Below are positions 783-10,819 of a stretch of DNA of 48,099 bases, piece by piece. Position numbers and translations under genes: made by a program. Location of the stretch: IMG/VR virus record IMGVR_UViG_3300048088_000772, positions 1-48,099 of that record. The stretch is one strand, 5' to 3'. Numbering within the stretch: position 1 is the first letter of the stretch; each line of letters starts with the position of its first letter. A model generated the notes under the pieces. That model did not search any database. It had not been told where the DNA came from and saw nothing but the letters and a program-made list of their open reading frames with translations. The stretch is from a virus.

Positions 783-859
783 GGATGAAACTCCTAACAC
801 TTTTAGTGAAGGCTTCACTCTTTCGCTACCAAACGAAGGGTGGCGGCCATGAACAGGTT

Positions 860-1002
860 GGTAGACCGGGTGTTAGGAGCCGGCGCGCCCGAAGACGCCC
901 TGTACATGACCACCATAGACCCCGATCGAAAGTACGATCGGTGATGGTGACGCTGTACATCTAACACTCGGGCTACCAAACCCGATCACTGGTTTTCAGT
1001 GA
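860..1002 (-). promoter_or_regulatory. Structured leader upstream of the DUF6124 gene
   Basis: The stretch upstream of the DUF6124 gene holds nested inverted repeats. GGTAGACCGGGTGTTAG (860-876) pairs with CTAACACTCGGGCTACC (961-977) with two mismatches. Inside it TGTACA (901-906) pairs with TGTACA (954-959), CACCAT with ATGGTG (944-949), and CCGATCG with CGATCGG (935-941). A separate TCACTG/CAGTGA hairpin lies at 986-1002. It would form the 5' untranslated part of the DUF6124 mRNA. A cis-acting RNA element or an interspersed repeat are the two explanations that fit. Confidence 0.5.
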
Positions 1003-1009
1003 CCCGAGA

Positions 1010-1038
1010 ACGATAGAACCCACGGTCTAGACGCACAA
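1010..1038 (-). promoter_or_regulatory. Candidate sigma-70 promoter for the DUF6124 leader
   Basis: Read on the minus strand, TTGTGC (1038-1033) and TATCGT (1015-1010) are separated by 17 bases. Transcription would start just before the structured leader and run into the gene starting at 782. Both hexamers match the consensus only partly. Confidence 0.35.
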
Positions 1039-1223
1039 GCCGGCGGATTCTGTCTTAGGTGTAGGGGGAGGCGCAAGGTGGTGTAGGGCCGAATCCGTGC
1101 TGACCACCACACTTTAAACAGACTGAATCTCAACCGTTTAAATTGAAGGCGCTGTACCAAGGCACGGGTCCAAGCAAGTCTGATAAAGTCGGCACCGGTT
1201 CATTCGTTGACAGGGAGTCAACC

Positions 1224-1769
1224 ATGGCAAAGCCAGCCGCACGCATCACCGATCCCATCAGTTGCCCAATGCCCGGGCACGGCCCCAAAGCCATCGCCTC
1301 CGGTTCCCCCGACGTATTCTTCGACGGACTTGCAGCCGCCCGAAAAGGCGACGCCTGCACCTGTGGCAGCGCATTGGCATCAGCGGTTTCAGGGACAGTT
1401 TTCATAAACAGCAAAAACGCCGCGCTTGTCGATACGGTCGGCACTCATGGTGACATCATCATTGGCGGATCAGGTACGGTGATCATTGGTGATTCGCATA
1501 CCCCTGCTCCCTTCATTCCACCTACCCCGATGGTCGTTCACGGCGACTGGATCGGGTTCAAAATTCCGGCTAACGAAAACTATGAAGGACTTTCCTGCGT
1601 CGCTCATTTTGAAGACGGCTCTAAAATGGAAGGCGTGTTTGACGCAAATAACACGGTGAAATTTTCAAATCCCACGGGCAAGGCCTGTACTGCGATTGAT
1701 TACGGAACTGACGAGATCCAAAGCGGCCCGTCGATTCTGGAAACTATTCTCGGCAAAATTCAGAGATAA
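1224..1769 (+). CDS. PAAR-domain T6SS tip protein, cassette 1
   Basis: A 181-residue protein with an N-terminal PAAR domain (residues 1 to about 95: AARITDP, then the CPMPGHGP and GSPDVFFDGLAAAR segments and a glycine-rich end). PAAR proteins form the sharp metal-binding tip on the VgrG spike and carry effectors to it. The last 80 residues form a separate domain (CVAHFEDGS, NPTGKAC) that may be an effector adaptor. The ATG at 1224 follows AGGGAG. The next gene begins ten bases after the stop, so PAAR, effector and immunity genes look co-transcribed. It is the same length as the copy at 4467. Confidence 0.9.
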   Translation: MAKPAARITDPISCPMPGHGPKAIASGSPDVFFDGLAAARKGDACTCGSALASAVSGTVFINSKNAALVDTVGTHGDIIIGGSGTVIIGDSHTPAPFIPPTPMVVHGDWIGFKIPANENYEGLSCVAHFEDGSKMEGVFDANNTVKFSNPTGKACTAIDYGTDEIQSGPSILETILGKIQR

Positions 1770-1779
1770 GGAGTATCTC

Positions 1780-2562
1780 ATGACAGAACCAATGCTCATT
1801 ACTGGTAGCTATGTCTTGAAGAGAGAGCACGATCTTCATAGCTCACCTTTAGAAATGGCAATCGCTGGAATGGAAGGCGCAGCAGCACGTTTTGCGACTG
1901 ATGCTATTAAAGACGCTAATACTCGTCTGAAATATCAAGCCAAGATCAAGGAAATGTCTCGCCTGGTTGAGGCTGAGGTCATGGCAGGAAAGGTTTCAGC
2001 CAAAGACGGCGTTGCTTACTGCCAAGAAATGCGAAACAACATTATGAACGAGCACCGCAAGTTTACGTCTGCTCAGGGCGTCGCCGTTGCGGAATACATC
2101 AAGCTCAACGGCCCAACACTACAGACCACTTTAGACAAATACGCTCACACGCTATTCAAGAAAAAGTTTGACCTTTTGACCGATGCAGAAAAGTCTAAAG
2201 TCCATTATCTGATTCTGAAAAAGTCCGGCGTAGACAATGCCAAGGTTACTCGTGGCACGAAGATGATGAAAGTCACCGGTAAGGTCGCATGGATTGTAAC
2301 CGCTGCCTTCGCTGCCTCTGAGATCTACAAAGCAGACAACAAGCCAAAAGAAGCCGGACGCCAAGGGATTATCCTGGGTGGAGGCGCCGCCGGTGGTGCG
2401 TTAGCCGGATTGAGTATTTCGATGCTGTGCGGACCCGCCGCCCCGGTCTGTGCAATCGCAGTTGTGGTTGCGGGAGGCGTCGCAGGCGGTATTCTTGGCG
2501 ACGTAGTGGCGGATAGTCTGGATGAAGAACTGGAGGAGTTTTTGACATGGAACGTTCAATGA
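1780..2562 (+). CDS. Putative T6SS effector with glycine-zipper C-terminus, cassette 1
   Basis: A 260-residue protein directly behind the PAAR gene, with AAGGAG six bases before ATG. The N-terminal 100 residues (GSYVLKREH, SPLEMAIAGMEGAA, EMRNNIMNEHRKFTSAQGVA) are shared with the copy at 5023. Residues 110-150 diverge between copies. The C-terminal part has a hydrophobic helix (VAWIVTAAFAA) and a long Gly/Ala-rich zipper interrupted by CGPAAPVC. This architecture suggests a membrane-acting, perhaps pore-forming, toxin or a translocation domain; no enzymatic motif was recognised. The effector role is inferred from context and is not proven. Confidence 0.7.
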   Translation: MTEPMLITGSYVLKREHDLHSSPLEMAIAGMEGAAARFATDAIKDANTRLKYQAKIKEMSRLVEAEVMAGKVSAKDGVAYCQEMRNNIMNEHRKFTSAQGVAVAEYIKLNGPTLQTTLDKYAHTLFKKKFDLLTDAEKSKVHYLILKKSGVDNAKVTRGTKMMKVTGKVAWIVTAAFAASEIYKADNKPKEAGRQGIILGGGAAGGALAGLSISMLCGPAAPVCAIAVVVAGGVAGGILGDVVADSLDEELEEFLTWNVQ

Positions 2563-2909
2563 CGGATGAGGAACTCGCTTACGTCTATTGGGCGCTATCT
2601 GACGCTTTTGTTGATACAGAAGTTGATTACGAAGCTATTGCGCGCCAAACCGAAAACTATGACCCTGAGGAGATCAGGCGAATTCTCTATCACGAGATAG
2701 CGCCTGTCTGTCATACGAATCTTGAGACGGTGATTCCAATGATATGGTCAGCATTCAATTTAGAAAATTTGAAAGCGGACATAGAGAGCATGCTAAGCAT
2801 GCGAAAAAATAGTTACTTTCGCCGCCAAAAAGACAAACTATTAATACGTTGGCTAGAATTCAGGTACAGCTATATCTGGAAAGAGATTAAAAAACACTAC
2901 AAGAGTTAA
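2547..2909 (+). CDS. DUF7079-like putative immunity protein, cassette 1
   Basis: A 120-residue paralogue of the protein at 1-369 (ALSDAFVDTEVDYEAIA, ILYHEIAPVC, YSYIWKEI). Two starts are possible. The ATG at 2547 has GGAGGA nine bases upstream. The ATG at 2559 gives an ATGA overlap with the effector stop, as in cassette 2. Either way it is translationally coupled to the effector, the usual arrangement for an immunity gene. Predicted soluble and cytoplasmic. It may protect against the effector at 1780, although that effector looks membrane-active and a cytoplasmic antidote would then have to act at the inner face of the membrane. Confidence 0.75.
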   Translation: MERSMTDEELAYVYWALSDAFVDTEVDYEAIARQTENYDPEEIRRILYHEIAPVCHTNLETVIPMIWSAFNLENLKADIESMLSMRKNSYFRRQKDKLLIRWLEFRYSYIWKEIKKHYKS

Positions 2910-4253: not shown

Positions 4254-4466
4254 ACCCACACTCCCCACCATTCCCCTCAAGGCGCACTTGATCGCTTATG
4301 AACTGGACACGCATCCACCTTTAACCTGCCGTGCCTGCCCTAAGGTTACCTTGTCTTCCCCTATCGCAATATCCAAGCATGGCGGTAGGCACTTGGGGCA
4401 GAAGAGCACCTTTCAAAGCAGGTCTGATACAGTGCGTTGAGTAAATTCATTGACAGGAAGTCAAGC

Positions 4467-5012
4467 ATGGCAAAGCCTGCAGCTCGCATCACTGATCCCA
4501 CCAATTGCCCAATCCCAGGGCACGGCCCTAAAGCAATCGCCTCTGGTTCTTCAGACGTATTTTTCGATGGCCTTGCTGCTGCTCGTAAAGACGACACGTG
4601 CACATGTGGCAGTGCATTAGCCTCGAGCGTATCGAGTACGGTATTCATTAACGGTAAAAATGCGGCGCTGGTCGGTACAGTCGGTACCCATGGTGACGTG
4701 GTGATCGGCGGTTCGGGAACCGTCATCATAGGTGACTCTCATACACCTGCTCCTTTCACTGCACCTATACCCATGATCATTCACGGCAATTGGATTGGCT
4801 TCAGGATCGCTGCTGAAGAGAGCTACGAGGGATACGCTTGTGTAGCTCACTTCGATGATGGCTCTTCAATACCCGGAGTGTTCGATTCTAATAATTCAAT
4901 TAGATTCTTAAACCCGACGGGCAAGACATGCCATACATTGGCGTTTGCACAAGATGAAAGCCTGTGCACCACTGCAGGGATCGACGGGCTGCTGAACGAC
5001 ATTTTGGGATAA
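4467..5012 (+). CDS. PAAR-domain T6SS tip protein, cassette 2
   Basis: 181 residues, the same length as the copy at 1224 and strongly similar throughout: PAAR domain at residues 1-95 with CPIPGHGP and GSSDVFFDGLAAAR, followed by a C-terminal domain of about 80 residues (CVAHFDDGS, NPTGKTC). The shared upstream sequence TTGACAGG-AGTCAA ends in the ribosome site of both copies. The effector gene follows after ten bases. Differences are mostly conservative, so both copies look functional; the duplication includes the 5' leader. Confidence 0.9.
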   Translation: MAKPAARITDPTNCPIPGHGPKAIASGSSDVFFDGLAAARKDDTCTCGSALASSVSSTVFINGKNAALVGTVGTHGDVVIGGSGTVIIGDSHTPAPFTAPIPMIIHGNWIGFRIAAEESYEGYACVAHFDDGSSIPGVFDSNNSIRFLNPTGKTCHTLAFAQDESLCTTAGIDGLLNDILG

Positions 5013-5022
5013 GGATATTCTC

Positions 5023-5805
5023 ATGAACGAACCGAATGTGGTAACTGGTAGCTACGTTGTTAAAAGTGAACACACGCTCACACACTCGCCACTAGAGATG
5101 GCAGTGGCCGGAATGGAAGGCGCTGCTACGCGCTTCTCCGTTGACGCCATTAAGGATGAGCGGGTTCGTGCTAGTTATGAAAGAAATATCAAGCGAATGT
5201 CACAACAGATATTTGCGGACGTACGAGCTGGTAATGTCACGGTTGAAGACGGGACAAAGTTCAGCAACGAAATGCGCAATAAAATAATGTATGAGCACCG
5301 AAAGTTTACTTCAGCTCAAGGCGTGGCCATTGCCCAAAAAAAGAAAGAGACCGGCAAAACCTATTCTGAGATCTTAAACGAAAAGTCTCAGACGCAGTTC
5401 AATAAAAATTACGAGCAGCTTACAAAATCACAGCAAAAAGAGGTTCTATACAGAGCATTAGAGCGTTCAGGAAATGCGAACGCAAGATTCAGCGCTGGCA
5501 CTAAGATCATGTCCGCGATGGGTAAAGTCGGTATTATCCTCACTGCCGTCCTCGCCACTTACTACATACTAGATGCAGACGACAAGGCTAAAGAAACTGC
5601 GCGCCAAGCCACCATCTTGGGTGCCGGTGCTGCTGGTGGCTTTCTCGCAGGTTTAGGCGTATCAGCGATTTGCGGTCCTGCAGCACCCGCCTGCGCCATA
5701 GCTGTAGTCCTAATCGGCAGCGTCGCCGGCGGTATCGCAGGAGGTGTAGCGGCTGACACTTTTGACGCAGAGCTTGAAGAGCTTGCCCACTGGGACATTC
5801 TATGA
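5023..5805 (+). CDS. Putative T6SS effector with glycine-zipper C-terminus, cassette 2
   Basis: 260 residues, co-linear with the effector at 1780. Conserved blocks are GSYVVKSEH, SPLEMAVAGMEGAA, MRNKIMYEHRKFTSAQGVA, the GTKIMSAMGK helix entrance and the Gly/Ala zipper around CGPAAPAC. The middle third (residues 108-155) is different in sequence, which may be where the cognate immunity protein binds. As in the first copy, a hydrophobic helix (VGIILTAVLATYYIL) precedes the zipper, pointing to membrane insertion. The start has GGA 11 bases before ATG. Confidence 0.7.
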   Translation: MNEPNVVTGSYVVKSEHTLTHSPLEMAVAGMEGAATRFSVDAIKDERVRASYERNIKRMSQQIFADVRAGNVTVEDGTKFSNEMRNKIMYEHRKFTSAQGVAIAQKKKETGKTYSEILNEKSQTQFNKNYEQLTKSQQKEVLYRALERSGNANARFSAGTKIMSAMGKVGIILTAVLATYYILDADDKAKETARQATILGAGAAGGFLAGLGVSAICGPAAPACAIAVVLIGSVAGGIAGGVAADTFDAELEELAHWDIL

Positions 5806-6161
5806 GCCCTGAAGAGAGAGCTTCCATTCAGATCGCTTTAGCTGAGTCATTTGTAGATAGCGCTGTCGACTACGCGTCTATAGCTGAACGCGTTCGCAGA
5901 TTTGATCTCAAGACCGTTGAGGAAATACTCTACTCTGAGGTGGCTCCAATATGCTTCAGCAATCTTGAAACCCCCGTGCCCTCCGTTTGGACAGGATTTA
6001 AGGATGACTGGCTATTGAGCGAAATATCAAAACAAAAGACAGCGAGAGAAGCCAGCAGAGTACGACGATACTTTGATGCATTAAAAATAGCTTGGCTACG
6101 TTACAGTTATGGTTATATCTGGAAAGAAATAACAAGCCACCTTAAATTAGAAGCACGTTAA
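5802..6161 (+). CDS. DUF7079-like putative immunity protein, cassette 2
   Basis: 119 residues, homologous to the proteins at 1 and 2547 (ALAESFVDSAVDYASIAERV, ILYSEVAPIC, WTGFKDDWLL, YSYGYIWKEI). The ATG overlaps the effector TGA as ATGA, so translation is coupled. Sequence differences from its paralogues are spread along the whole protein, as expected if each copy has adapted to its own effector. No signal peptide. It ends the second cassette; the next recognisable gene starts more than 600 bases later. Confidence 0.75.
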   Translation: MSPEERASIQIALAESFVDSAVDYASIAERVRRFDLKTVEEILYSEVAPICFSNLETPVPSVWTGFKDDWLLSEISKQKTAREASRVRRYFDALKIAWLRYSYGYIWKEITSHLKLEAR

Positions 6162-6200: not shown

Positions 6201-6338
6201 AGTTGAGGATGCATAGGGATTCGAACCCCTTCTAGCGTCTTTGTAGACCGCTCAAGGCCACAATTTACGGCTCTTTAATGCATCATGCATGGCGTCACAC
6301 GGTCTGTGGCGGCCCTGAATTTGCCCTAATTTTGCCCT
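6201..6338 (-). other. tRNA-3'-end-like relic and paired GGGCAAA motif
   Basis: On the minus strand a T-arm-like segment GGGGTTCGAATCCC is followed by ATGCATC, which can pair with GATGCAT about 65 bases upstream. No normal anticodon arm forms between them, so this is not a working tRNA. Next to it (6320-6338) is the second paired GGGCAAA motif. Together they look like the worn edge of a former tRNA-targeting element. Confidence 0.35.
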
Positions 6339-6435
6339 AAACCCGCCTGCCGGATGTTATTTGACCAAGGCGTACTGCACCTCTTAGTGGATGCCTTCAC
6401 CTATCATTCTCCACTCCCCTCTGACGCGCTTGTGA

Positions 6436-6609
6436 GGCGCGGTCAAATACCAGGCACGGACCTTCGATGGCCCCGAGGTTGAGTGGCTTCACCGTTTAGA
6501 TGCCCATGTTAAAGCCTTCGGCTCTATTGGCCGCATGAAGCGTGTCAGCCAAAGTGCTTGCCCACTGCCAAGCCAATTAGCTGCCTTCCCTAACCGCATG
6601 GCGTGTTGA
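6436..6609 (+). pseudogene. Unrecognised 57-codon open fragment without a start
   Basis: An open stretch reads VKYQARTFDGPEVEWLHRLD and onwards to a TGA. It has protein-like composition but no start codon or ribosome site at its beginning. It may be the tail of a lost gene. I do not recognise the family. The TGA overlaps the -35 element of the promoter that follows. Confidence 0.25.
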
Positions 6610-6634
6610 CACTGTTTGCCTTAAAGGGTAAATT
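6606..6634 (+). promoter_or_regulatory. Strong sigma-70-like promoter upstream of the small RNA and DUF3800 gene
   Basis: TTGACA (6606-6611) is a perfect -35 hexamer, separated by exactly 17 bases from TAAATT (6629-6634). The predicted start is near 6641, at the beginning of a run of four hairpins. It is one of the best promoter matches seen in the window. Confidence 0.65.
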
Positions 6635-6640
6635 TTCTGC

Positions 6641-6767
6641 GAGTCGGTAGCGCTGCCCATAGCGGTGCATGAAGGAAATCCTTCGCTGGCTTACCTAATT
6701 CGTTAAAGCTGTGCCACATGCACAGTTCTCATTACCAAAGTCGAGCAGCCAGCTCGACTTTTTTTTT
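6641..6767 (+). ncRNA. Candidate small structured RNA before the DUF3800 gene
   Basis: Between a strong promoter and a strong terminator lie about 125 bases with no convincing reading frame and four consecutive hairpins: GCGCTGC/GCGGTGC (6650-6668, with G-U pairs), GAAGG-AAAT-CCTTC (6671-6684), CTGTGC/GCACAG (6709-6725) and the terminator stem. Structured RNAs upstream of DUF3800 genes have been described as DUF3800 RNA motifs; I cannot say whether this matches one of them. It could act as a separate RNA partner of the protein or as an attenuating leader. Confidence 0.5.
6738..6767 (+). terminator. Rho-independent terminator before the DUF3800 gene
   Basis: AAGTCGAGC and GCTCGACTT form a perfect 9-bp stem with a 5-base loop, running into nine consecutive T. 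It ends 27 bases before the DUF3800 start codon. It therefore either ends a separate small RNA or attenuates DUF3800 expression. Confidence 0.85.
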
Positions 6768-6794
6768 GCCTTTCTTTTGCATGGGGATGACAGG

Positions 6795-7586
6795 ATGCAC
6801 CTTCTCTACGTTGACGAATCAGGCTCGCCAAGCGATCCGGACCAGAATTTTTTTATCCTATCCGGAGTGTCTATCTTTGAGCGGAAGACGCACTGGGTTG
6901 AAGCACAGTTGAATGAAATCGTAGCCAAGTTTAGCCCTGAGGACCCTTACGCGTTAGAGCTGCACGGCTCGCCGATGCGATCTGGTAAAAGCGAATGGAA
7001 GCATTTTCAGAAGGATGATCGTATCCAAGCGATAAAGGACTGCTTGTCCATCATCGCCGAGTCGAAGGGAAAGATCAGATTATTTGCTGCGGTGATAGAG
7101 CGTGGAGCGAATGGTGGCGACGATCCAATCCAAAGCTGTTTTGAACAAGTTGCCTCGCGTTTCGACATGTACCTGCGTCGACTCCATGCGCAAGGCGATC
7201 CTCAACGAGGGATTGCCATTTTTGATAAGTCGAGCACTGAAAAAAGTATTCAGAACCTTGCAAGAACCTTTAAGCACGACGGCCATTCGTTCGGCAAAAT
7301 CAAAAATTTTGCTGAAGTGCCGCTGTTTTTAGACTCTAAAGCGTCCAGGATGATCCAGCTTGCAGATTTAGTCGCATTCTCCATTTATCGGCACTATCAG
7401 GCTGGCGATTCGCAGTTCTACGACATCATAAAAAACTGCTTCGATAACGTCGGAGGTACCGTGCACGGCCTACATGTACGCCGAAAACTACAGCGTGTTG
7501 AAGCTGCCCCGAAGCTAGCAACGGCGACCATGGTCACTACAGTCGAAGCAATGCAGGTGGAAATTCAAATGCATGATAATGGCTAA
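6795..7586 (+). CDS. DUF3800 domain protein (predicted RNase H-fold nuclease)
   Basis: A 263-residue protein beginning MHLLYVDESGSPSD. The DES acidic motif close to the N-terminus, a following FILSGVSI strand, and the C-terminal SRMIQLADLVAFSIYRHY helix are hallmarks of DUF3800, which is predicted to have an RNase H-like fold with metal-binding acidic residues. Members occur in phages and defence islands and lack an established reaction. The ATG at 6795 is preferred because the conserved strand starts there, with GGGGA upstream; the frame extends to 6711 but would run through the terminator stem. Downstream lies a HEPN gene on the same strand. Confidence 0.8.
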   Translation: MHLLYVDESGSPSDPDQNFFILSGVSIFERKTHWVEAQLNEIVAKFSPEDPYALELHGSPMRSGKSEWKHFQKDDRIQAIKDCLSIIAESKGKIRLFAAVIERGANGGDDPIQSCFEQVASRFDMYLRRLHAQGDPQRGIAIFDKSSTEKSIQNLARTFKHDGHSFGKIKNFAEVPLFLDSKASRMIQLADLVAFSIYRHYQAGDSQFYDIIKNCFDNVGGTVHGLHVRRKLQRVEAAPKLATATMVTTVEAMQVEIQMHDNG

Positions 7587-7752
7587 ACTCCGATTGTGCT
7601 CCTTGCGAGCCTGTGCGGAGCCTAGGTCGCCGTTACTGGCTCACAAATTACGTAACTCAAGGAGCGCCTTTGTGCTTCAGCGGGATTGAAGCCTTGATCT
7701 CGGCCTGCAAGAGGATCATGAGGCGCAACACAACACTAATGAGGAGTTCGAA

Positions 7753-9009
7753 ATGGAAGCAAAATGGAGTGACAAAAGCGCAAAATTCAAGCCACAGATC
7801 TTCATCAAGCCGATACTAGAATGCTCTTCTGTGAATGCAAACGGCAAAGTGCAATACGATGGTTTCAAATACTTCGAAAATAGGGGCCTACTTAGAAGCA
7901 TGATTCTATTTGAAGGAAAGGAATTTCTTTCTCCTAAAACGGAAGATGACATCTTTGACTCAGGGCTAAACTCTTTTGCGCTATCCTCAAAAATAACCGA
8001 CCCGAATTTACCAGCAGCGCTTCTAGCATGTATAAATATAAAACTGAAAACTTATCTATCCAAAAGCAAGAAAAAATTCTTTATAGTCACGTCCATTTCC
8101 ACCAATGGAAAACTACCTATAACCAAGCTCATTAACAACGGGATCGAAATAAAAATCCATCCATCGGGCATCCCTAAAAAATTCAGATCACGAAATCAAT
8201 ACGACAAGCTTTGGCAACAACCTGAACCTCATACTCCAACTGAATTTGCAGGAGTTGTAGTAAAGGCTGAAGCACGCACTCCAGATGACGCAATGTATGC
8301 GGCGATAGAAGAAGTAGATTTTTTGCGTGGGATTTTATCTTTTTTTGCCAATCCGACAATGTCGCTGTCGCTATATGGAGGTAAGAGCAAAGGTATAAAT
8401 CGTATTCGCCTTGGTGGACTACATAGCGTGCATAGTGAAGATGGAGTTGTCGCGAGCAAACAATTTTGGTATGAGCCAAATCACACAATTAGAACCCCCT
8501 ATACTTTTAATCACGAAAACCTGAAACACATCGCTATGAAAATAAGGAAAATTTTCAGACGCATTGAACAAATTAAAGGAGGCCTTAAAATCAGAGATGG
8601 GATAATCCGATATGTCAGAGCATTAGACGAGAGCGACAATGATCATCTTATTATAAAGCTATGGGGTGCATTGGAAGCGACGGTTGGTGAAGGCGACAAA
8701 AGTGATTTGATCATAAAACGCTGCTCTTACCTTTACAAAGATCAAGAATTTGTACGGCAAATTTTGGAAATCTCAAAAGTTTATAGAAACAGAAATGTTC
8801 ATGGAAACCACAGCTCCAGTATAGCAAATCAACTAGGGCATCACCTCCACAGTATTTTTACACACCTGATACTCTTTTATGTTGGCAGCAAAGATCTTAT
8901 CAGTGTATCAGAGGCAAACTCATTCTTAGACTCACCTCTTTCGTCAGGCGACTTAGAAAGGAAAATTTTTCTATTAAAGAAAGCCATTCGTTTTAGATCA
9001 GGCACTTAA
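7753..9009 (+). CDS. HEPN-domain protein, ApeA-like candidate RNase
   Basis: A 418-residue, AT-rich gene unlike its GC-rich prophage neighbours. The N-terminal 240 residues form an uncharacterised, probably beta-rich domain. The C-terminal third is helical (LWGALEATVGEGDKSDLIIKR) and ends in the HEPN signature Rx4H at residues 345-350 (YRNRNVHG), with the polar residue after Arg typical of HEPN ribonucleases. The layout resembles ApeA-type abortive-infection proteins. GAGGAG lies six bases before the ATG. It lies 166 bases behind the DUF3800 gene on the same strand, with no terminator seen between, so the two may work together. The target RNA is unknown. Confidence 0.7.
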   Translation: MEAKWSDKSAKFKPQIFIKPILECSSVNANGKVQYDGFKYFENRGLLRSMILFEGKEFLSPKTEDDIFDSGLNSFALSSKITDPNLPAALLACINIKLKTYLSKSKKKFFIVTSISTNGKLPITKLINNGIEIKIHPSGIPKKFRSRNQYDKLWQQPEPHTPTEFAGVVVKAEARTPDDAMYAAIEEVDFLRGILSFFANPTMSLSLYGGKSKGINRIRLGGLHSVHSEDGVVASKQFWYEPNHTIRTPYTFNHENLKHIAMKIRKIFRRIEQIKGGLKIRDGIIRYVRALDESDNDHLIIKLWGALEATVGEGDKSDLIIKRCSYLYKDQEFVRQILEISKVYRNRNVHGNHSSSIANQLGHHLHSIFTHLILFYVGSKDLISVSEANSFLDSPLSSGDLERKIFLLKKAIRFRSGT

Positions 9010-9030: not shown

Positions 9031-10308
9031 CTAGACACAGGCAACTCTCCATAACTGATCCAATTTGGTGGTGTAGCTCTGACTCATCATTTCGCGGCGC
9101 ATTCCCCATGTAGGGTTAGCTGGCACACTTGCAGCACGAAGTGTTCCGCTCCCCCAACGCTCATTGATCTGATCTAGGACCACCATCACCCTAGTTGCTT
9201 CCGCCGGCTGCGATTTAGCAAAAAAATCGTCGGTGTACTCACCTGGCTGACACAGATTTAGCAGCATTACCTCGGCCTTGCTATATTTGAAGCCTGGGCG
9301 AAATACGCGCTCAAGTGCCCCTACTGCCGCCTGAGTGAGAAGGCGAACGTCACCAGTGGGATACGGCAAATCTATCATTACACCGTTGGCGTATTTCGCC
9401 TCCTCAGGATTAAACATTCCGGTGCGGATACAAACGCGCACCTTCTTACAGAGAGAGTTCTGAGCACGGAGCTTTTCAGATGCTCGCATCATGTAGGTGG
9501 CCACCGCCTCTTTGATAGGCAGCAACTCCGTCAGACGCTGGCCGAACATGCGACTACAGCAAATCTCCTGCTTTGGAGGATCTGGTTCGTCCAGCTCCAG
9601 GCAAGGCGTGCCGGCCAACTCCCGGGCCGTTTTCTCGATCACCACGCTGAAATTTTTTCTCAAAGTCCACGGGTCTGCTTTCGCCAGATCCATGGCGGTC
9701 TTGATCCCCATGCCGTCGAGGTGCACTTTCATGCGCCGTCCTACTCCCCACACCTCCGCTACGTTCGTGTTACGCAGCACCCAGTCGCGCTTGACTGGGT
9801 CGCAGATGTTCACGACGCCACCGGTTTGCGCCTGGAGGCGTTTGGCGGTGTGGTTGGCCAGCTTGGCCAAGGTTTTGGTGTGCGCGATACCGACACCGAC
9901 AGGTATACCCGTGCAGCGAAGTACCTGGCTGCGGATCTTGCGGCCGAGACTGTCCAAGTCATTGATGCCGGTGAAGTCGGCGAAGGCTTCGTCGATGCTG
10001 TACACCTCAACGGCCGGCACCATCGATTCGATCAGGGTCATGACGCGTTCGCTCATGTCGCCGTACAGCGCGTAATTCGAGGAGAACGGGACGATGCCGT
10101 GCTGCTTGAGCTTGTGCTTGATCTGGAAGTACGGCTCGCCCATTTTCACGTAGGGTTTGGCATCGTAGCTCCGGGCGATGACACAGCCGTCGTTGTTCGA
10201 CAGCACCACGATGGGCACCTTGGCCAGGTCAGGACGGAACACGCGTTCGCAACTGGCGTAGAAGCTGTTGCAATCGATTAGGCCAAATACCGGCGTCACC
10301 TTAGACAT
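9031..10308 (-). CDS. umuC: Error-prone DNA polymerase V subunit UmuC
   Basis: 425 residues, close to E. coli UmuC (422). A Y-family polymerase that copies past DNA lesions when bound to processed UmuD and RecA. Motifs are ALIDCNSFYASCERVF-type metal-binding site at the N-terminus (here FGLIDCNSFYASCERVF), VEVYSIDEAFADF with the paired catalytic acids, and the GVGRRMKVHLDGMGI helix-hairpin-helix region. The start codon overlaps the umuD stop by eight bases. Controlled with umuD by the LexA box at 10745. It is convergent with the HEPN gene. Confidence 0.96.
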   Translation of the reverse strand: MSKVTPVFGLIDCNSFYASCERVFRPDLAKVPIVVLSNNDGCVIARSYDAKPYVKMGEPYFQIKHKLKQHGIVPFSSNYALYGDMSERVMTLIESMVPAVEVYSIDEAFADFTGINDLDSLGRKIRSQVLRCTGIPVGVGIAHTKTLAKLANHTAKRLQAQTGGVVNICDPVKRDWVLRNTNVAEVWGVGRRMKVHLDGMGIKTAMDLAKADPWTLRKNFSVVIEKTARELAGTPCLELDEPDPPKQEICCSRMFGQRLTELLPIKEAVATYMMRASEKLRAQNSLCKKVRVCIRTGMFNPEEAKYANGVMIDLPYPTGDVRLLTQAAVGALERVFRPGFKYSKAEVMLLNLCQPGEYTDDFFAKSQPAEATRVMVVLDQINERWGSGTLRAASVPANPTWGMRREMMSQSYTTKLDQLWRVACV

Positions 10309-10726
10309 GGCTGCGCACGCTGCCGATGATTACGCCCCAGATGGCTAGCTCATCACCTTCCAGCACATAGCGAGGCGGATACTTGGGGTTCTCAGACAAT
10401 AGGATCACGTCCTTTCCGCGGACGCACAGTCGTTTACACAGCGGATCGTTGTTCAGCAGCGCCACGACGATGTGACCATGGGCCGGCTCCAGCGAACGAT
10501 CTACTACCGCCAGATCTCCGTCAAAGATGCCCGCGCCCTGCATACTTTCCCCGGTGATTTTCACCAGGTAGACATGCGGGGCGCGGATGTTGAGCACCTC
10601 ATCTAAGGAGATGTGTGCCTCAATGTGATCAGCCGCCGGCGAAGGAAAACCAGCGGGTACCTGGAACAAACAAAGAGGCAGCTTCAGGCCGACCTCGGCA
10701 ATTGGGCCTAAAATTGAATAACTCAT
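10301..10726 (-). CDS. umuD: UmuD-type self-cleaving polymerase V subunit
   Basis: 141 residues, matching the usual UmuD length. The cleavage region reads PAGFPSPAADH, so the scissile bond would be Ala-Gly instead of the Cys-Gly of E. coli. The Ser-Lys pair of the S24 fold is present: GESMQGAGIFDGDL with the nucleophilic Ser, and Lys in LCKRLC. RecA-stimulated self-cleavage converts it to the active partner of UmuC. The ATG at 10726 has GGAAG upstream; the frame opens further to 10771, but that stretch contains the LexA operator and is not conserved. Confidence 0.95.
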   Translation of the reverse strand: MSYSILGPIAEVGLKLPLCLFQVPAGFPSPAADHIEAHISLDEVLNIRAPHVYLVKITGESMQGAGIFDGDLAVVDRSLEPAHGHIVVALLNNDPLCKRLCVRGKDVILLSENPKYPPRYVLEGDELAIWGVIIGSVRSHV

Positions 10727-10744
10727 GACGCACGACTTCCAACA

Positions 10745-10760
10745 CTGTACGAACATACAG
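10745..10760 (-). promoter_or_regulatory. LexA box of umuDC
   Basis: CTGTACGAACATACAG fits CTGT-N8-ACAG exactly. It lies 19 bases upstream of the umuD start and 60 bases upstream of the divergent SRAP gene, so DNA damage could induce both directions. Confidence 0.9.
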
Positions 10761-10819
10761 TTAACTTTCATAAGCGCTCGCGGTCAATTTCTGTAGGAAA
10801 TATCTGATAGGCGGGCGAT

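What the first reader, a model, noticed from the sequence alone, without database searches (positions are those of the whole stretch)
6606..9009. Candidate RNA-guided or RNA-controlled defence locus: small RNA, DUF3800 nuclease and HEPN protein
A strong promoter (TTGACA-17-TAAATT), about 125 non-coding bases with four hairpins and a strong terminator come immediately before a DUF3800 gene (predicted RNase H fold), followed on the same strand by a protein with an RNRNVH HEPN motif. The unit sits between an attachment relic and an SOS cassette inside a mobile element. RNA motifs near DUF3800 genes are known, but their function and the link to a HEPN protein are not. The RNA could be a guide, an antitoxin-like partner or an attenuator that senses infection.
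Basis: partly seen in the sequence, partly recalled or inferred. Interest (0 to 1): 0.8.

Follow-up and report, generated by a model that had tools for sequence, protein, structure and literature searches.

The report
Small RNA paired with DUF3800 nuclease
A prophage carries a known but unexplained pair, a short folded RNA made just before the gene of a nuclease-like protein; the pair recurs as a self-contained unit across at least eight bacterial phyla and looks like a toxin held in check by an RNA, while the neighbouring HEPN-like gene is only a chance companion.

Summary
Positions 6641-6692 match Rfam DUF3800-VI (RF02915, 35.5 bits, cut-off 35), a three-way junction between a promoter and a terminator, 5' of a DUF3800 gene. 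A model built here finds the same RNA 5' of 91 of 95 related DUF3800 loci in eight or more phyla; covariation supports 18 of 20 pairs. A -10 box sits 5-9 bases before the RNA's first base, and nearly every leader ends the RNA before the gene, by a T-run after the junction or a separate hairpin. DUF3800 is predicted to have an RNase HII-like fold. No spacer-like segment exists, so a guide RNA is not supported. The HEPN-like protein is not a partner: close relatives carry RNA-DUF3800 without it, or it without RNA-DUF3800, and 75 loci share no conserved neighbour. In other DUF3800 clades different Rfam RNAs lie convergent at the gene's 3' side, which argues for an RNA acting in trans rather than a purely cis leader. 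Best reading: an RNA-neutralised nuclease that works like a type III toxin-antitoxin or AbiF/RCd22. Toxicity, RNA binding and phage defence are untested. The locus is a member of a known, functionally unexplained RNA-protein family.

The parts
6606..6634 (+). sigma-70-like promoter TTGACA-17-TAAATT of the RNA
   Evidence: a TANNNT box ends 5-9 nt before the RNA in the set of 77 unique leaders; homology of the module with L002 starts at 6596
6641..6692 (+). DUF3800-VI RNA core: three-way junction, P1 6641-6648/6685-6692, P2 6650-6656/6662-6668, P3 6671-6675/6680-6684
   Evidence: Rfam RF02915 35.5 bits; own model R1 58.7 bits; covariation
6693..6768 (+). 3' part of the small RNA: conserved single-stranded ACCTAATTCG, an extra hairpin (about 6707-6727) seen only in the window, L002 and L003, and the intrinsic terminator (6737-6761 plus T-run)
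6795..7586 (+). DUF3800 protein, 263 aa, predicted RNase HII-like nuclease (invariant D7, D144, D191; E8 in 91%)
   Evidence: PF12686; model and fold match to RNase HII/H2
7753..9009 (+). separate cargo gene: 418-aa protein with a HEPN-like R-X4-H motif (RNRNVH); not part of the module
   Evidence: occurs without DUF3800 in L004, L005, L012
9031..10308 (-). umuC-like polymerase of the SOS cassette next to the cargo slot
   Evidence: IMS, IMS_C, DUF4113
10301..10771 (-). umuD-like S24 peptidase; LexA-like box at 10745-10760

Best explanation
The locus is a compact two-part module: a small structured RNA (about 6641-6768) and the RNase HII-like DUF3800 nuclease. Transcription starts at the first base of a three-way junction and mostly stops at the terminator, so the RNA is made in excess; occasional read-through gives the nuclease mRNA. 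The most likely mechanism is that the RNA binds the nuclease and keeps it inactive (an RNA antitoxin), and that loss or degradation of the RNA, for example when a phage shuts off host transcription or the element is lost, frees a toxic nuclease. Shown: RNA structure, near-obligate pairing, the sequence signals for start and stop of the RNA, predicted nuclease fold with conserved acidic residues, independence from the HEPN gene. Inferred: RNA-protein binding, inhibition, toxicity, defence or addiction role. The HEPN-like gene is separate cargo in the same prophage slot.
For: RNA 5' of 91 of 95 related DUF3800 loci; of the four others L014 shows the junction by eye, L066 is cut by a contig end, L099 was not searched (its leader equals that of L097), and L048 has its gene start replaced by foreign sequence. 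Covariation: 95.6% of cells paired, 18 of 20 pairs with changes on both sides, 0 of 500 shuffles. Promoter at fixed distance. Terminator dichotomy: 20 of 21 short gaps have a T-run right after the junction, 55 of 57 long gaps a separate hairpin terminator, against 6.9 in shuffles. Same layout as type III TA (PMC5086642) and as AbiF/RCd22, an Rfam motif shown to neutralise its prophage-borne toxin (PMC12373285). RNase HII-like fold, Z up to 10.8. No intact gene without the RNA was seen, while broken genes with the RNA kept are frequent: L044, L045, L065, L088, L107, L112, L120, Agrobacterium L121 and L122. In eight loci of other DUF3800 clades an Rfam DUF3800-V, -VII or -IX RNA lies convergent at the 3' side, so an RNA partner does not need to be a leader. 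Module found on prophages, ColE1-type and Ti-type plasmids; in 5426 E. coli genomes only on plasmids.
Against: No toxicity, binding or phage data. Not shown to be related to ToxN-type toxins, and the RNA is single copy, not a tandem array. Persistence of the RNA beside freshly broken genes is also expected without selection. An RNase HII-like fold may act on RNA/DNA hybrids rather than cellular RNA. The predicted active site is by fold match and conservation only.
Confidence: 0.5

Rival explanations
1. RNA as obligate cofactor: the junction RNA and DUF3800 form an active ribonucleoprotein in which the RNA is a scaffold or activator, not an inhibitor.
For: Near-universal pairing, matched divergence of RNA and protein (Mantel r 0.63, 0 of 999), convergent layout in other clades, RNA in excess by termination. 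DUF3800 proteins accompany some type V-A2 and VI-F CRISPR loci (PMC12669027; PMC10910872).
Against: Frequent gene decay with the RNA kept fits a costly protein better; no target-binding segment.
Confidence: 0.22
2. Cis-regulatory leader: the RNA only controls transcription or translation of DUF3800 (Rfam types DUF3800-VI as Cis-reg), perhaps by the protein binding its own leader.
For: Always 5' of the gene on the same strand in this clade, 7-104 nt before the start; terminator before the gene.
Against: Junction bases pair with downstream sequence only 4% of the time on average, so no conserved antiterminator; in cyanobacteria, Verrucomicrobia and Treponema the junction itself is the terminator; eight loci of other DUF3800 clades carry their RNAs convergent at the 3' side.
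Confidence: 0.18
3. Programmable guide RNA for an RNase H-fold nuclease (OMEGA, CRISPR or bridge-RNA-like).
For: RNase H-like fold next to an upstream structured RNA.
Against: The RNA starts and ends in closed helices; short loops; proteins at least 95% identical have RNAs 98-100% identical; no hypervariable segment between the window and L002.
Confidence: 0.04
4. RNA, DUF3800 and the HEPN-like protein form one defence system.
For: Adjacent and on the same strand in the window.
Against: L002 has RNA-DUF3800 followed by another gene; L004 and L005 have the HEPN-like gene beside umuC with other cargo; GC 48.5% against 39.0%; no shared neighbour in 75 loci, first downstream ORF on either strand about equally often.
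Confidence: 0.03

Closest known systems
Rfam RF02915 DUF3800-VI RNA with Pfam PF12686 DUF3800
   Same: RNA model passes its cut-off, sits directly 5' of a DUF3800 gene; protein passes the Pfam cut-off
   Different: The window, L002 and L003 have an extra hairpin between junction and terminator; Rfam types the family Cis-reg, while the anatomy here is that of a terminated small RNA
AbiF/RCd22 of Clostridioides difficile (abiF RNA RF03085 with Abi_2 protein; PMC12373285)
   Same: Prophage-borne; promoter, 100-130 nt structured RNA, Rho-independent terminator, then the gene, expressed by read-through
   Different: Different RNA (two abiF motifs) and different protein; here a single three-way junction and an RNase HII-like fold; toxicity untested
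Type III toxin-antitoxin (ToxIN, TenpIN, CptIN; PMC5086642)
   Same: Single promoter, RNA, terminator, nuclease gene
   Different: No tandem repeats; the best fold matches are RNase HII/H2
DUF3800-V, -VII, -IX RNAs (RF02964, RF02967, RF02968)
   Same: Compact self-terminated RNAs next to DUF3800 genes
   Different: Convergent at the 3' side of the gene instead of a 5' leader
RNase HII / RNase H2
   Same: Predicted fold, N-terminal DE pair and further conserved aspartates
   Different: About 10% identity; DESG in place of the DEAGRG motif (motif from general knowledge)

Membership tests
DUF3800-VI RNA (RF02915) | covariance score at or above the gathering score | tested here: met
   35.5 bits against 35; own R1 model 58.7 bits (the window is in its seed)
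DUF3800-VI RNA (RF02915) | three-way junction supported by covariation | tested here: met
   18 of 20 pairs with changes on both sides, 0 of 500 shuffles
DUF3800-VI RNA (RF02915) | immediately 5' of a DUF3800 gene | tested here: met
   gap of 102 nt in the window; 91 of 95 loci
DUF3800 (PF12686) | Pfam cut-off and RNase H-like fold | tested here: met
   80.6 bits against 21; model pLDDT 91.6, RNase HII/H2 matches Z up to 10.8
Type III toxin-antitoxin | promoter, RNA, intrinsic terminator, nuclease gene in that order | tested here: met
Type III toxin-antitoxin | antitoxin RNA of tandem repeats | tested here: not met
   no repeat array at 6400-7000 beyond 1.9 copies of an 11-nt T-rich unit after the terminator
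Type III toxin-antitoxin | ToxN-like toxin fold | tested here: inconclusive
   best fold matches are RNase HII/H2; no ToxN listed, which does not exclude it
Type III toxin-antitoxin | toxic protein neutralised by the RNA | not testable with these tools
   needs expression and binding assays
RNA-guided nuclease (OMEGA, CRISPR, bridge RNA) | variable targeting segment in the RNA | tested here: not met
   RNA identity follows protein identity; no variable stretch between close copies
HEPN ribonuclease (7753-9009) | R-X4-6-H motif | tested here: met
   RNRNVH, invariant in four relatives
HEPN ribonuclease (7753-9009) | HEPN fold or profile match | tested here: inconclusive
   no Pfam, NCBIfam or PADLOC match; model unusable
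DUF3800-HEPN operon | co-occurrence in other genomes | tested here: not met
   separate in L002, L004, L005, L012; 0 of 369 genomes with the HEPN relative

The most novel reading that the evidence does not exclude
DUF3800 modules are a new, very widespread class of RNA-neutralised toxins: one self-terminating folded RNA restrains an RNase HII-fold nuclease, in two layouts (5' leader, or convergent at the 3' side), with no relation to ToxIN or AbiF, acting in plasmid addiction or abortive phage defence.
Probability: 0.33. Interest if true: 0.85.

Novelty: new member of a known kind. Interest (0 to 1): 0.55.

Why it matters
DUF3800-associated RNAs are catalogued in Rfam, but no function was found in the held literature. 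The evidence here narrows the options: not a guide, not tied to the HEPN gene, and probably not only a cis leader. It gives simple tests (express the protein with and without the RNA, mutate D7 or D144, supply the RNA in trans). If the RNA is an antitoxin, a structured-RNA toxin control system distinct from ToxIN exists in eight or more phyla.

Tried and rejected
Guide RNA: rejected. HEPN partnership: rejected. Conformational attenuator: no conserved alternative pairing. Self-mobile element with fixed ends: the conserved block starts about 38-53 nt before the RNA (the promoter) and ends shortly after the gene in several pairs, but longer syntenic blocks also occur and no terminal repeats were sought in detail. 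LexA control of the RNA promoter: no box there. HEPN structure: model unusable. Solved-structure sequence search: no relative of DUF3800, only a chance-level match for the HEPN-like protein. PADLOC: only weak partial matches to PDC-M04A/B and PDC-S51. Weinberg et al. 2017, which I recall as the source paper of the motif, is not held. Genus-level sampling around the window was not possible because it is a virus record. No ToxN structure appeared among the fold matches.

Full report
What is there. The window is a 48,099-base virus record. At 6606-6634 lies TTGACA-17-TAAATT, followed by a leader whose fold is far more stable than shuffles (z -4.45): a three-way junction (6641-6692), a hairpin (about 6707-6727), and a terminator hairpin with a T-run (6737-6768). 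Rfam DUF3800-VI matches the junction just above its cut-off. The DUF3800 gene follows at 6795-7586, then a 418-aa protein with an RNRNVH motif (7753-9009), then umuC, umuD and SRAP. The promoter scan as such is not above chance (6 found, 4.7 expected); the support for this promoter comes from comparison with relatives.

The RNA is conserved with the gene. Protein relatives were fetched from viral contigs, phages, plasmids and genomes. Their leaders show the same junction in proteobacteria, Acidobacteria, Cyanobacteria, Verrucomicrobia, Treponema, Meiothermus, Caldilineaceae and Chitinophagaceae. A covariance model from 11 of them (R1) finds the RNA 5' of 91 of 95 loci; the four others are explained by divergence (junction visible by eye in L014), a cut contig (L066), a gene start replaced by a sequence that resembles a transposon end (L048; my reading), or were not searched (L099). 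On 74 distinct sequences 95.6% of cells pair and 18 of 20 pairs show changes on both sides; no shuffle reaches this, and sliding the partners by one base drops the pairing to about 44%. That alignment was fitted to the model, but the seed alignment A3 gives the same result (97.3%, 15 of 20).

The RNA looks like a short transcript by design. A TANNNT box ends 5 to 9 nt before the first base of the junction: 77 hits at these five offsets among 77 unique leaders, against 0 to 5 per offset elsewhere. After the junction there are two solutions: where the gene is close (gap under 40 nt) a run of T follows the junction directly (20 of 21 unique leaders); where it is farther, a separate hairpin terminator is present (55 of 57, against a mean of 6.9 in block shuffles). 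Two independent ways of ending the RNA before the gene suggest selection for a terminated small RNA. The junction pairs little with downstream sequence (4% of bases on average), so there is no sign of a conserved terminator/antiterminator switch.

It is not a guide. RNA and protein divergence go together (Mantel r 0.63, 0 of 999 permutations); proteins at least 95% identical have RNAs 98-100% identical. The window and L002 differ by scattered changes only. The RNA begins and ends in helices and its loops are short.

The protein. The model is confident (pLDDT 91.6). The best solved matches are RNase HII/H2 (Foldseek E 4e-5, probability 1.0, modest TM-scores of about 0.4; second look Z 9-10.8, rmsd from 2.8). 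D7, E55, D124, D144, E149 and D191 are invariant in 65 sequences, and position 8 is E or D. By analogy to the DEDD site of RNase HII (general knowledge) D7, E8, D144 and D191 are the likely catalytic set; this is inference. An RNase H fold for DUF3800 was also reported by Altae-Tran et al. (PMC10910872).

The HEPN-like gene is not part of it. L002 has a block 88% identical to 6596-7654 (promoter, RNA, DUF3800), then a different gene, then umuC. L004 and L005 have 7740 or 7732 onwards (HEPN-like gene and umuDC) with other cargo in front. The slot in these prophages also holds a DUF3644/HEPN-like protein and a PIN_8 protein, and in L003 a PHP-AAA protein lies downstream of DUF3800, so it looks like a cargo slot. 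The HEPN-like gene is rare (0 of 369 gammaproteobacterial genomes; one 28-30% relative on a Shewanella plasmid without DUF3800) and AT-rich (39.0% GC against 48.5%). Among 75 DUF3800 loci no neighbour family recurs in more than three, and the first downstream ORF is on either strand about equally often (39 to 36): the RNA and DUF3800 form a unit of two.

RNA-first search. Searching genomes with R1 rather than the protein and reading the flanks: the ten hits of 35 bits or more in genomes not chosen for their DUF3800 gene all have a DUF3800 gene or remnant directly downstream; four weaker hits (27-35 bits) have none and are chance or decayed copies. Several of these genomes coincide with loci found before, so this is not a fully independent sample.

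Gene decay. In-frame stops, frameshifts or truncations of DUF3800 beside a kept RNA were seen in L044, L045, L065, L088, L107, L112, L120 and in Agrobacterium plasmids. No intact gene lacking the RNA was found. This fits a costly protein with a harmless RNA but is also what recent decay would give; I treat it as suggestive.

Other DUF3800 clades. Among 185 gammaproteobacterial genomes 26 have a DUF3800 gene. Five of twenty loci scanned carry Rfam DUF3800-V, -VII or -IX RNAs, in each case convergent with and at the 3' side of the gene, most with a T-run at or near the RNA's end. RNA-first searches added three more (L157, L160, L162), again convergent. Rfam types these as sRNA genes. A partner RNA that is a leader in one clade and a convergent gene in others is hard to explain as a purely cis-acting element. 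That the different RNAs are homologous is not shown.

Mechanism. The layout of promoter, folded RNA, terminator, nuclease gene is that of type III toxin-antitoxin loci (PMC5086642) and of AbiF/RCd22, where an Rfam motif upstream of a prophage gene was shown to bind and neutralise the toxin in cis and in trans (PMC12373285). I therefore favour an RNA-neutralised nuclease (0.5), then an RNA cofactor (0.22), then a purely cis leader (0.18). It is not filed as type III: the tandem-repeat criterion is not met and toxicity is untested. As to membership it belongs to DUF3800-VI/DUF3800, a known association of unknown function.

Noticed in passing
window 1244-1315 and 4487-4558: Rfam 'Pseudomonas sRNA P10' (RF01668) matches both lie inside ORFs that look like PAAR-type coding sequence (1143-1769, 4437-5012), so the P10 'sRNA' may be coding sequence.
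   Followed up: no
window 836-1016, minus strand: C4 antisense RNA and its a1/b1 target (RF01695, RF03163) side by side; the same pair occurs in L002 next to a kup-like gene.
   Followed up: no
window 1143-2909 and 4437-6161: Two diverged copies of a three-gene cassette (PAAR-like, membrane-like, DUF7079), 3243 bases apart; the last gene may be an immunity protein.
   Followed up: no
window about 6207-6237: Sequence resembling a tRNA T-arm end (GGGATTCGAACCCC), possible attachment-site relic; no tRNA gene is found in the window.
   Followed up: no
L129, L132, L137, L139, L144, L157, L160, L162: DUF3800-V, -VII and -IX RNAs are convergent at the 3' side of their DUF3800 genes, unlike DUF3800-VI.
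   Followed up: partly
L002, L004, L005 cargo slot next to umuC; L003: Alternative cargo: 259-aa membrane-like protein (L002), DUF3644/HEPN-like protein (L004), PIN_8 protein (L005); in L003 a PHP-AAA protein lies downstream of DUF3800. A possible defence-gene slot.
   Followed up: partly
L123 (E. coli plasmid pCAVP773_2): An IS3-family element lies beside a shortened DUF3800 gene whose RNA is no longer found next to it.
   Followed up: partly
L037, L032, L063, L065: Rfam's fast gathering search misses DUF3800-VI hits of 42-46 bits in Cyanobacteria, Caldilineaceae, Meiothermus and Acidobacteria that the slower search reports, so the family's spread may be under-reported.
   Followed up: yes
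L114 1501-1555, minus strand: A possible orphan junction RNA with a damaged P2 helix and no DUF3800 gene nearby (34.6 bits).
   Followed up: partly
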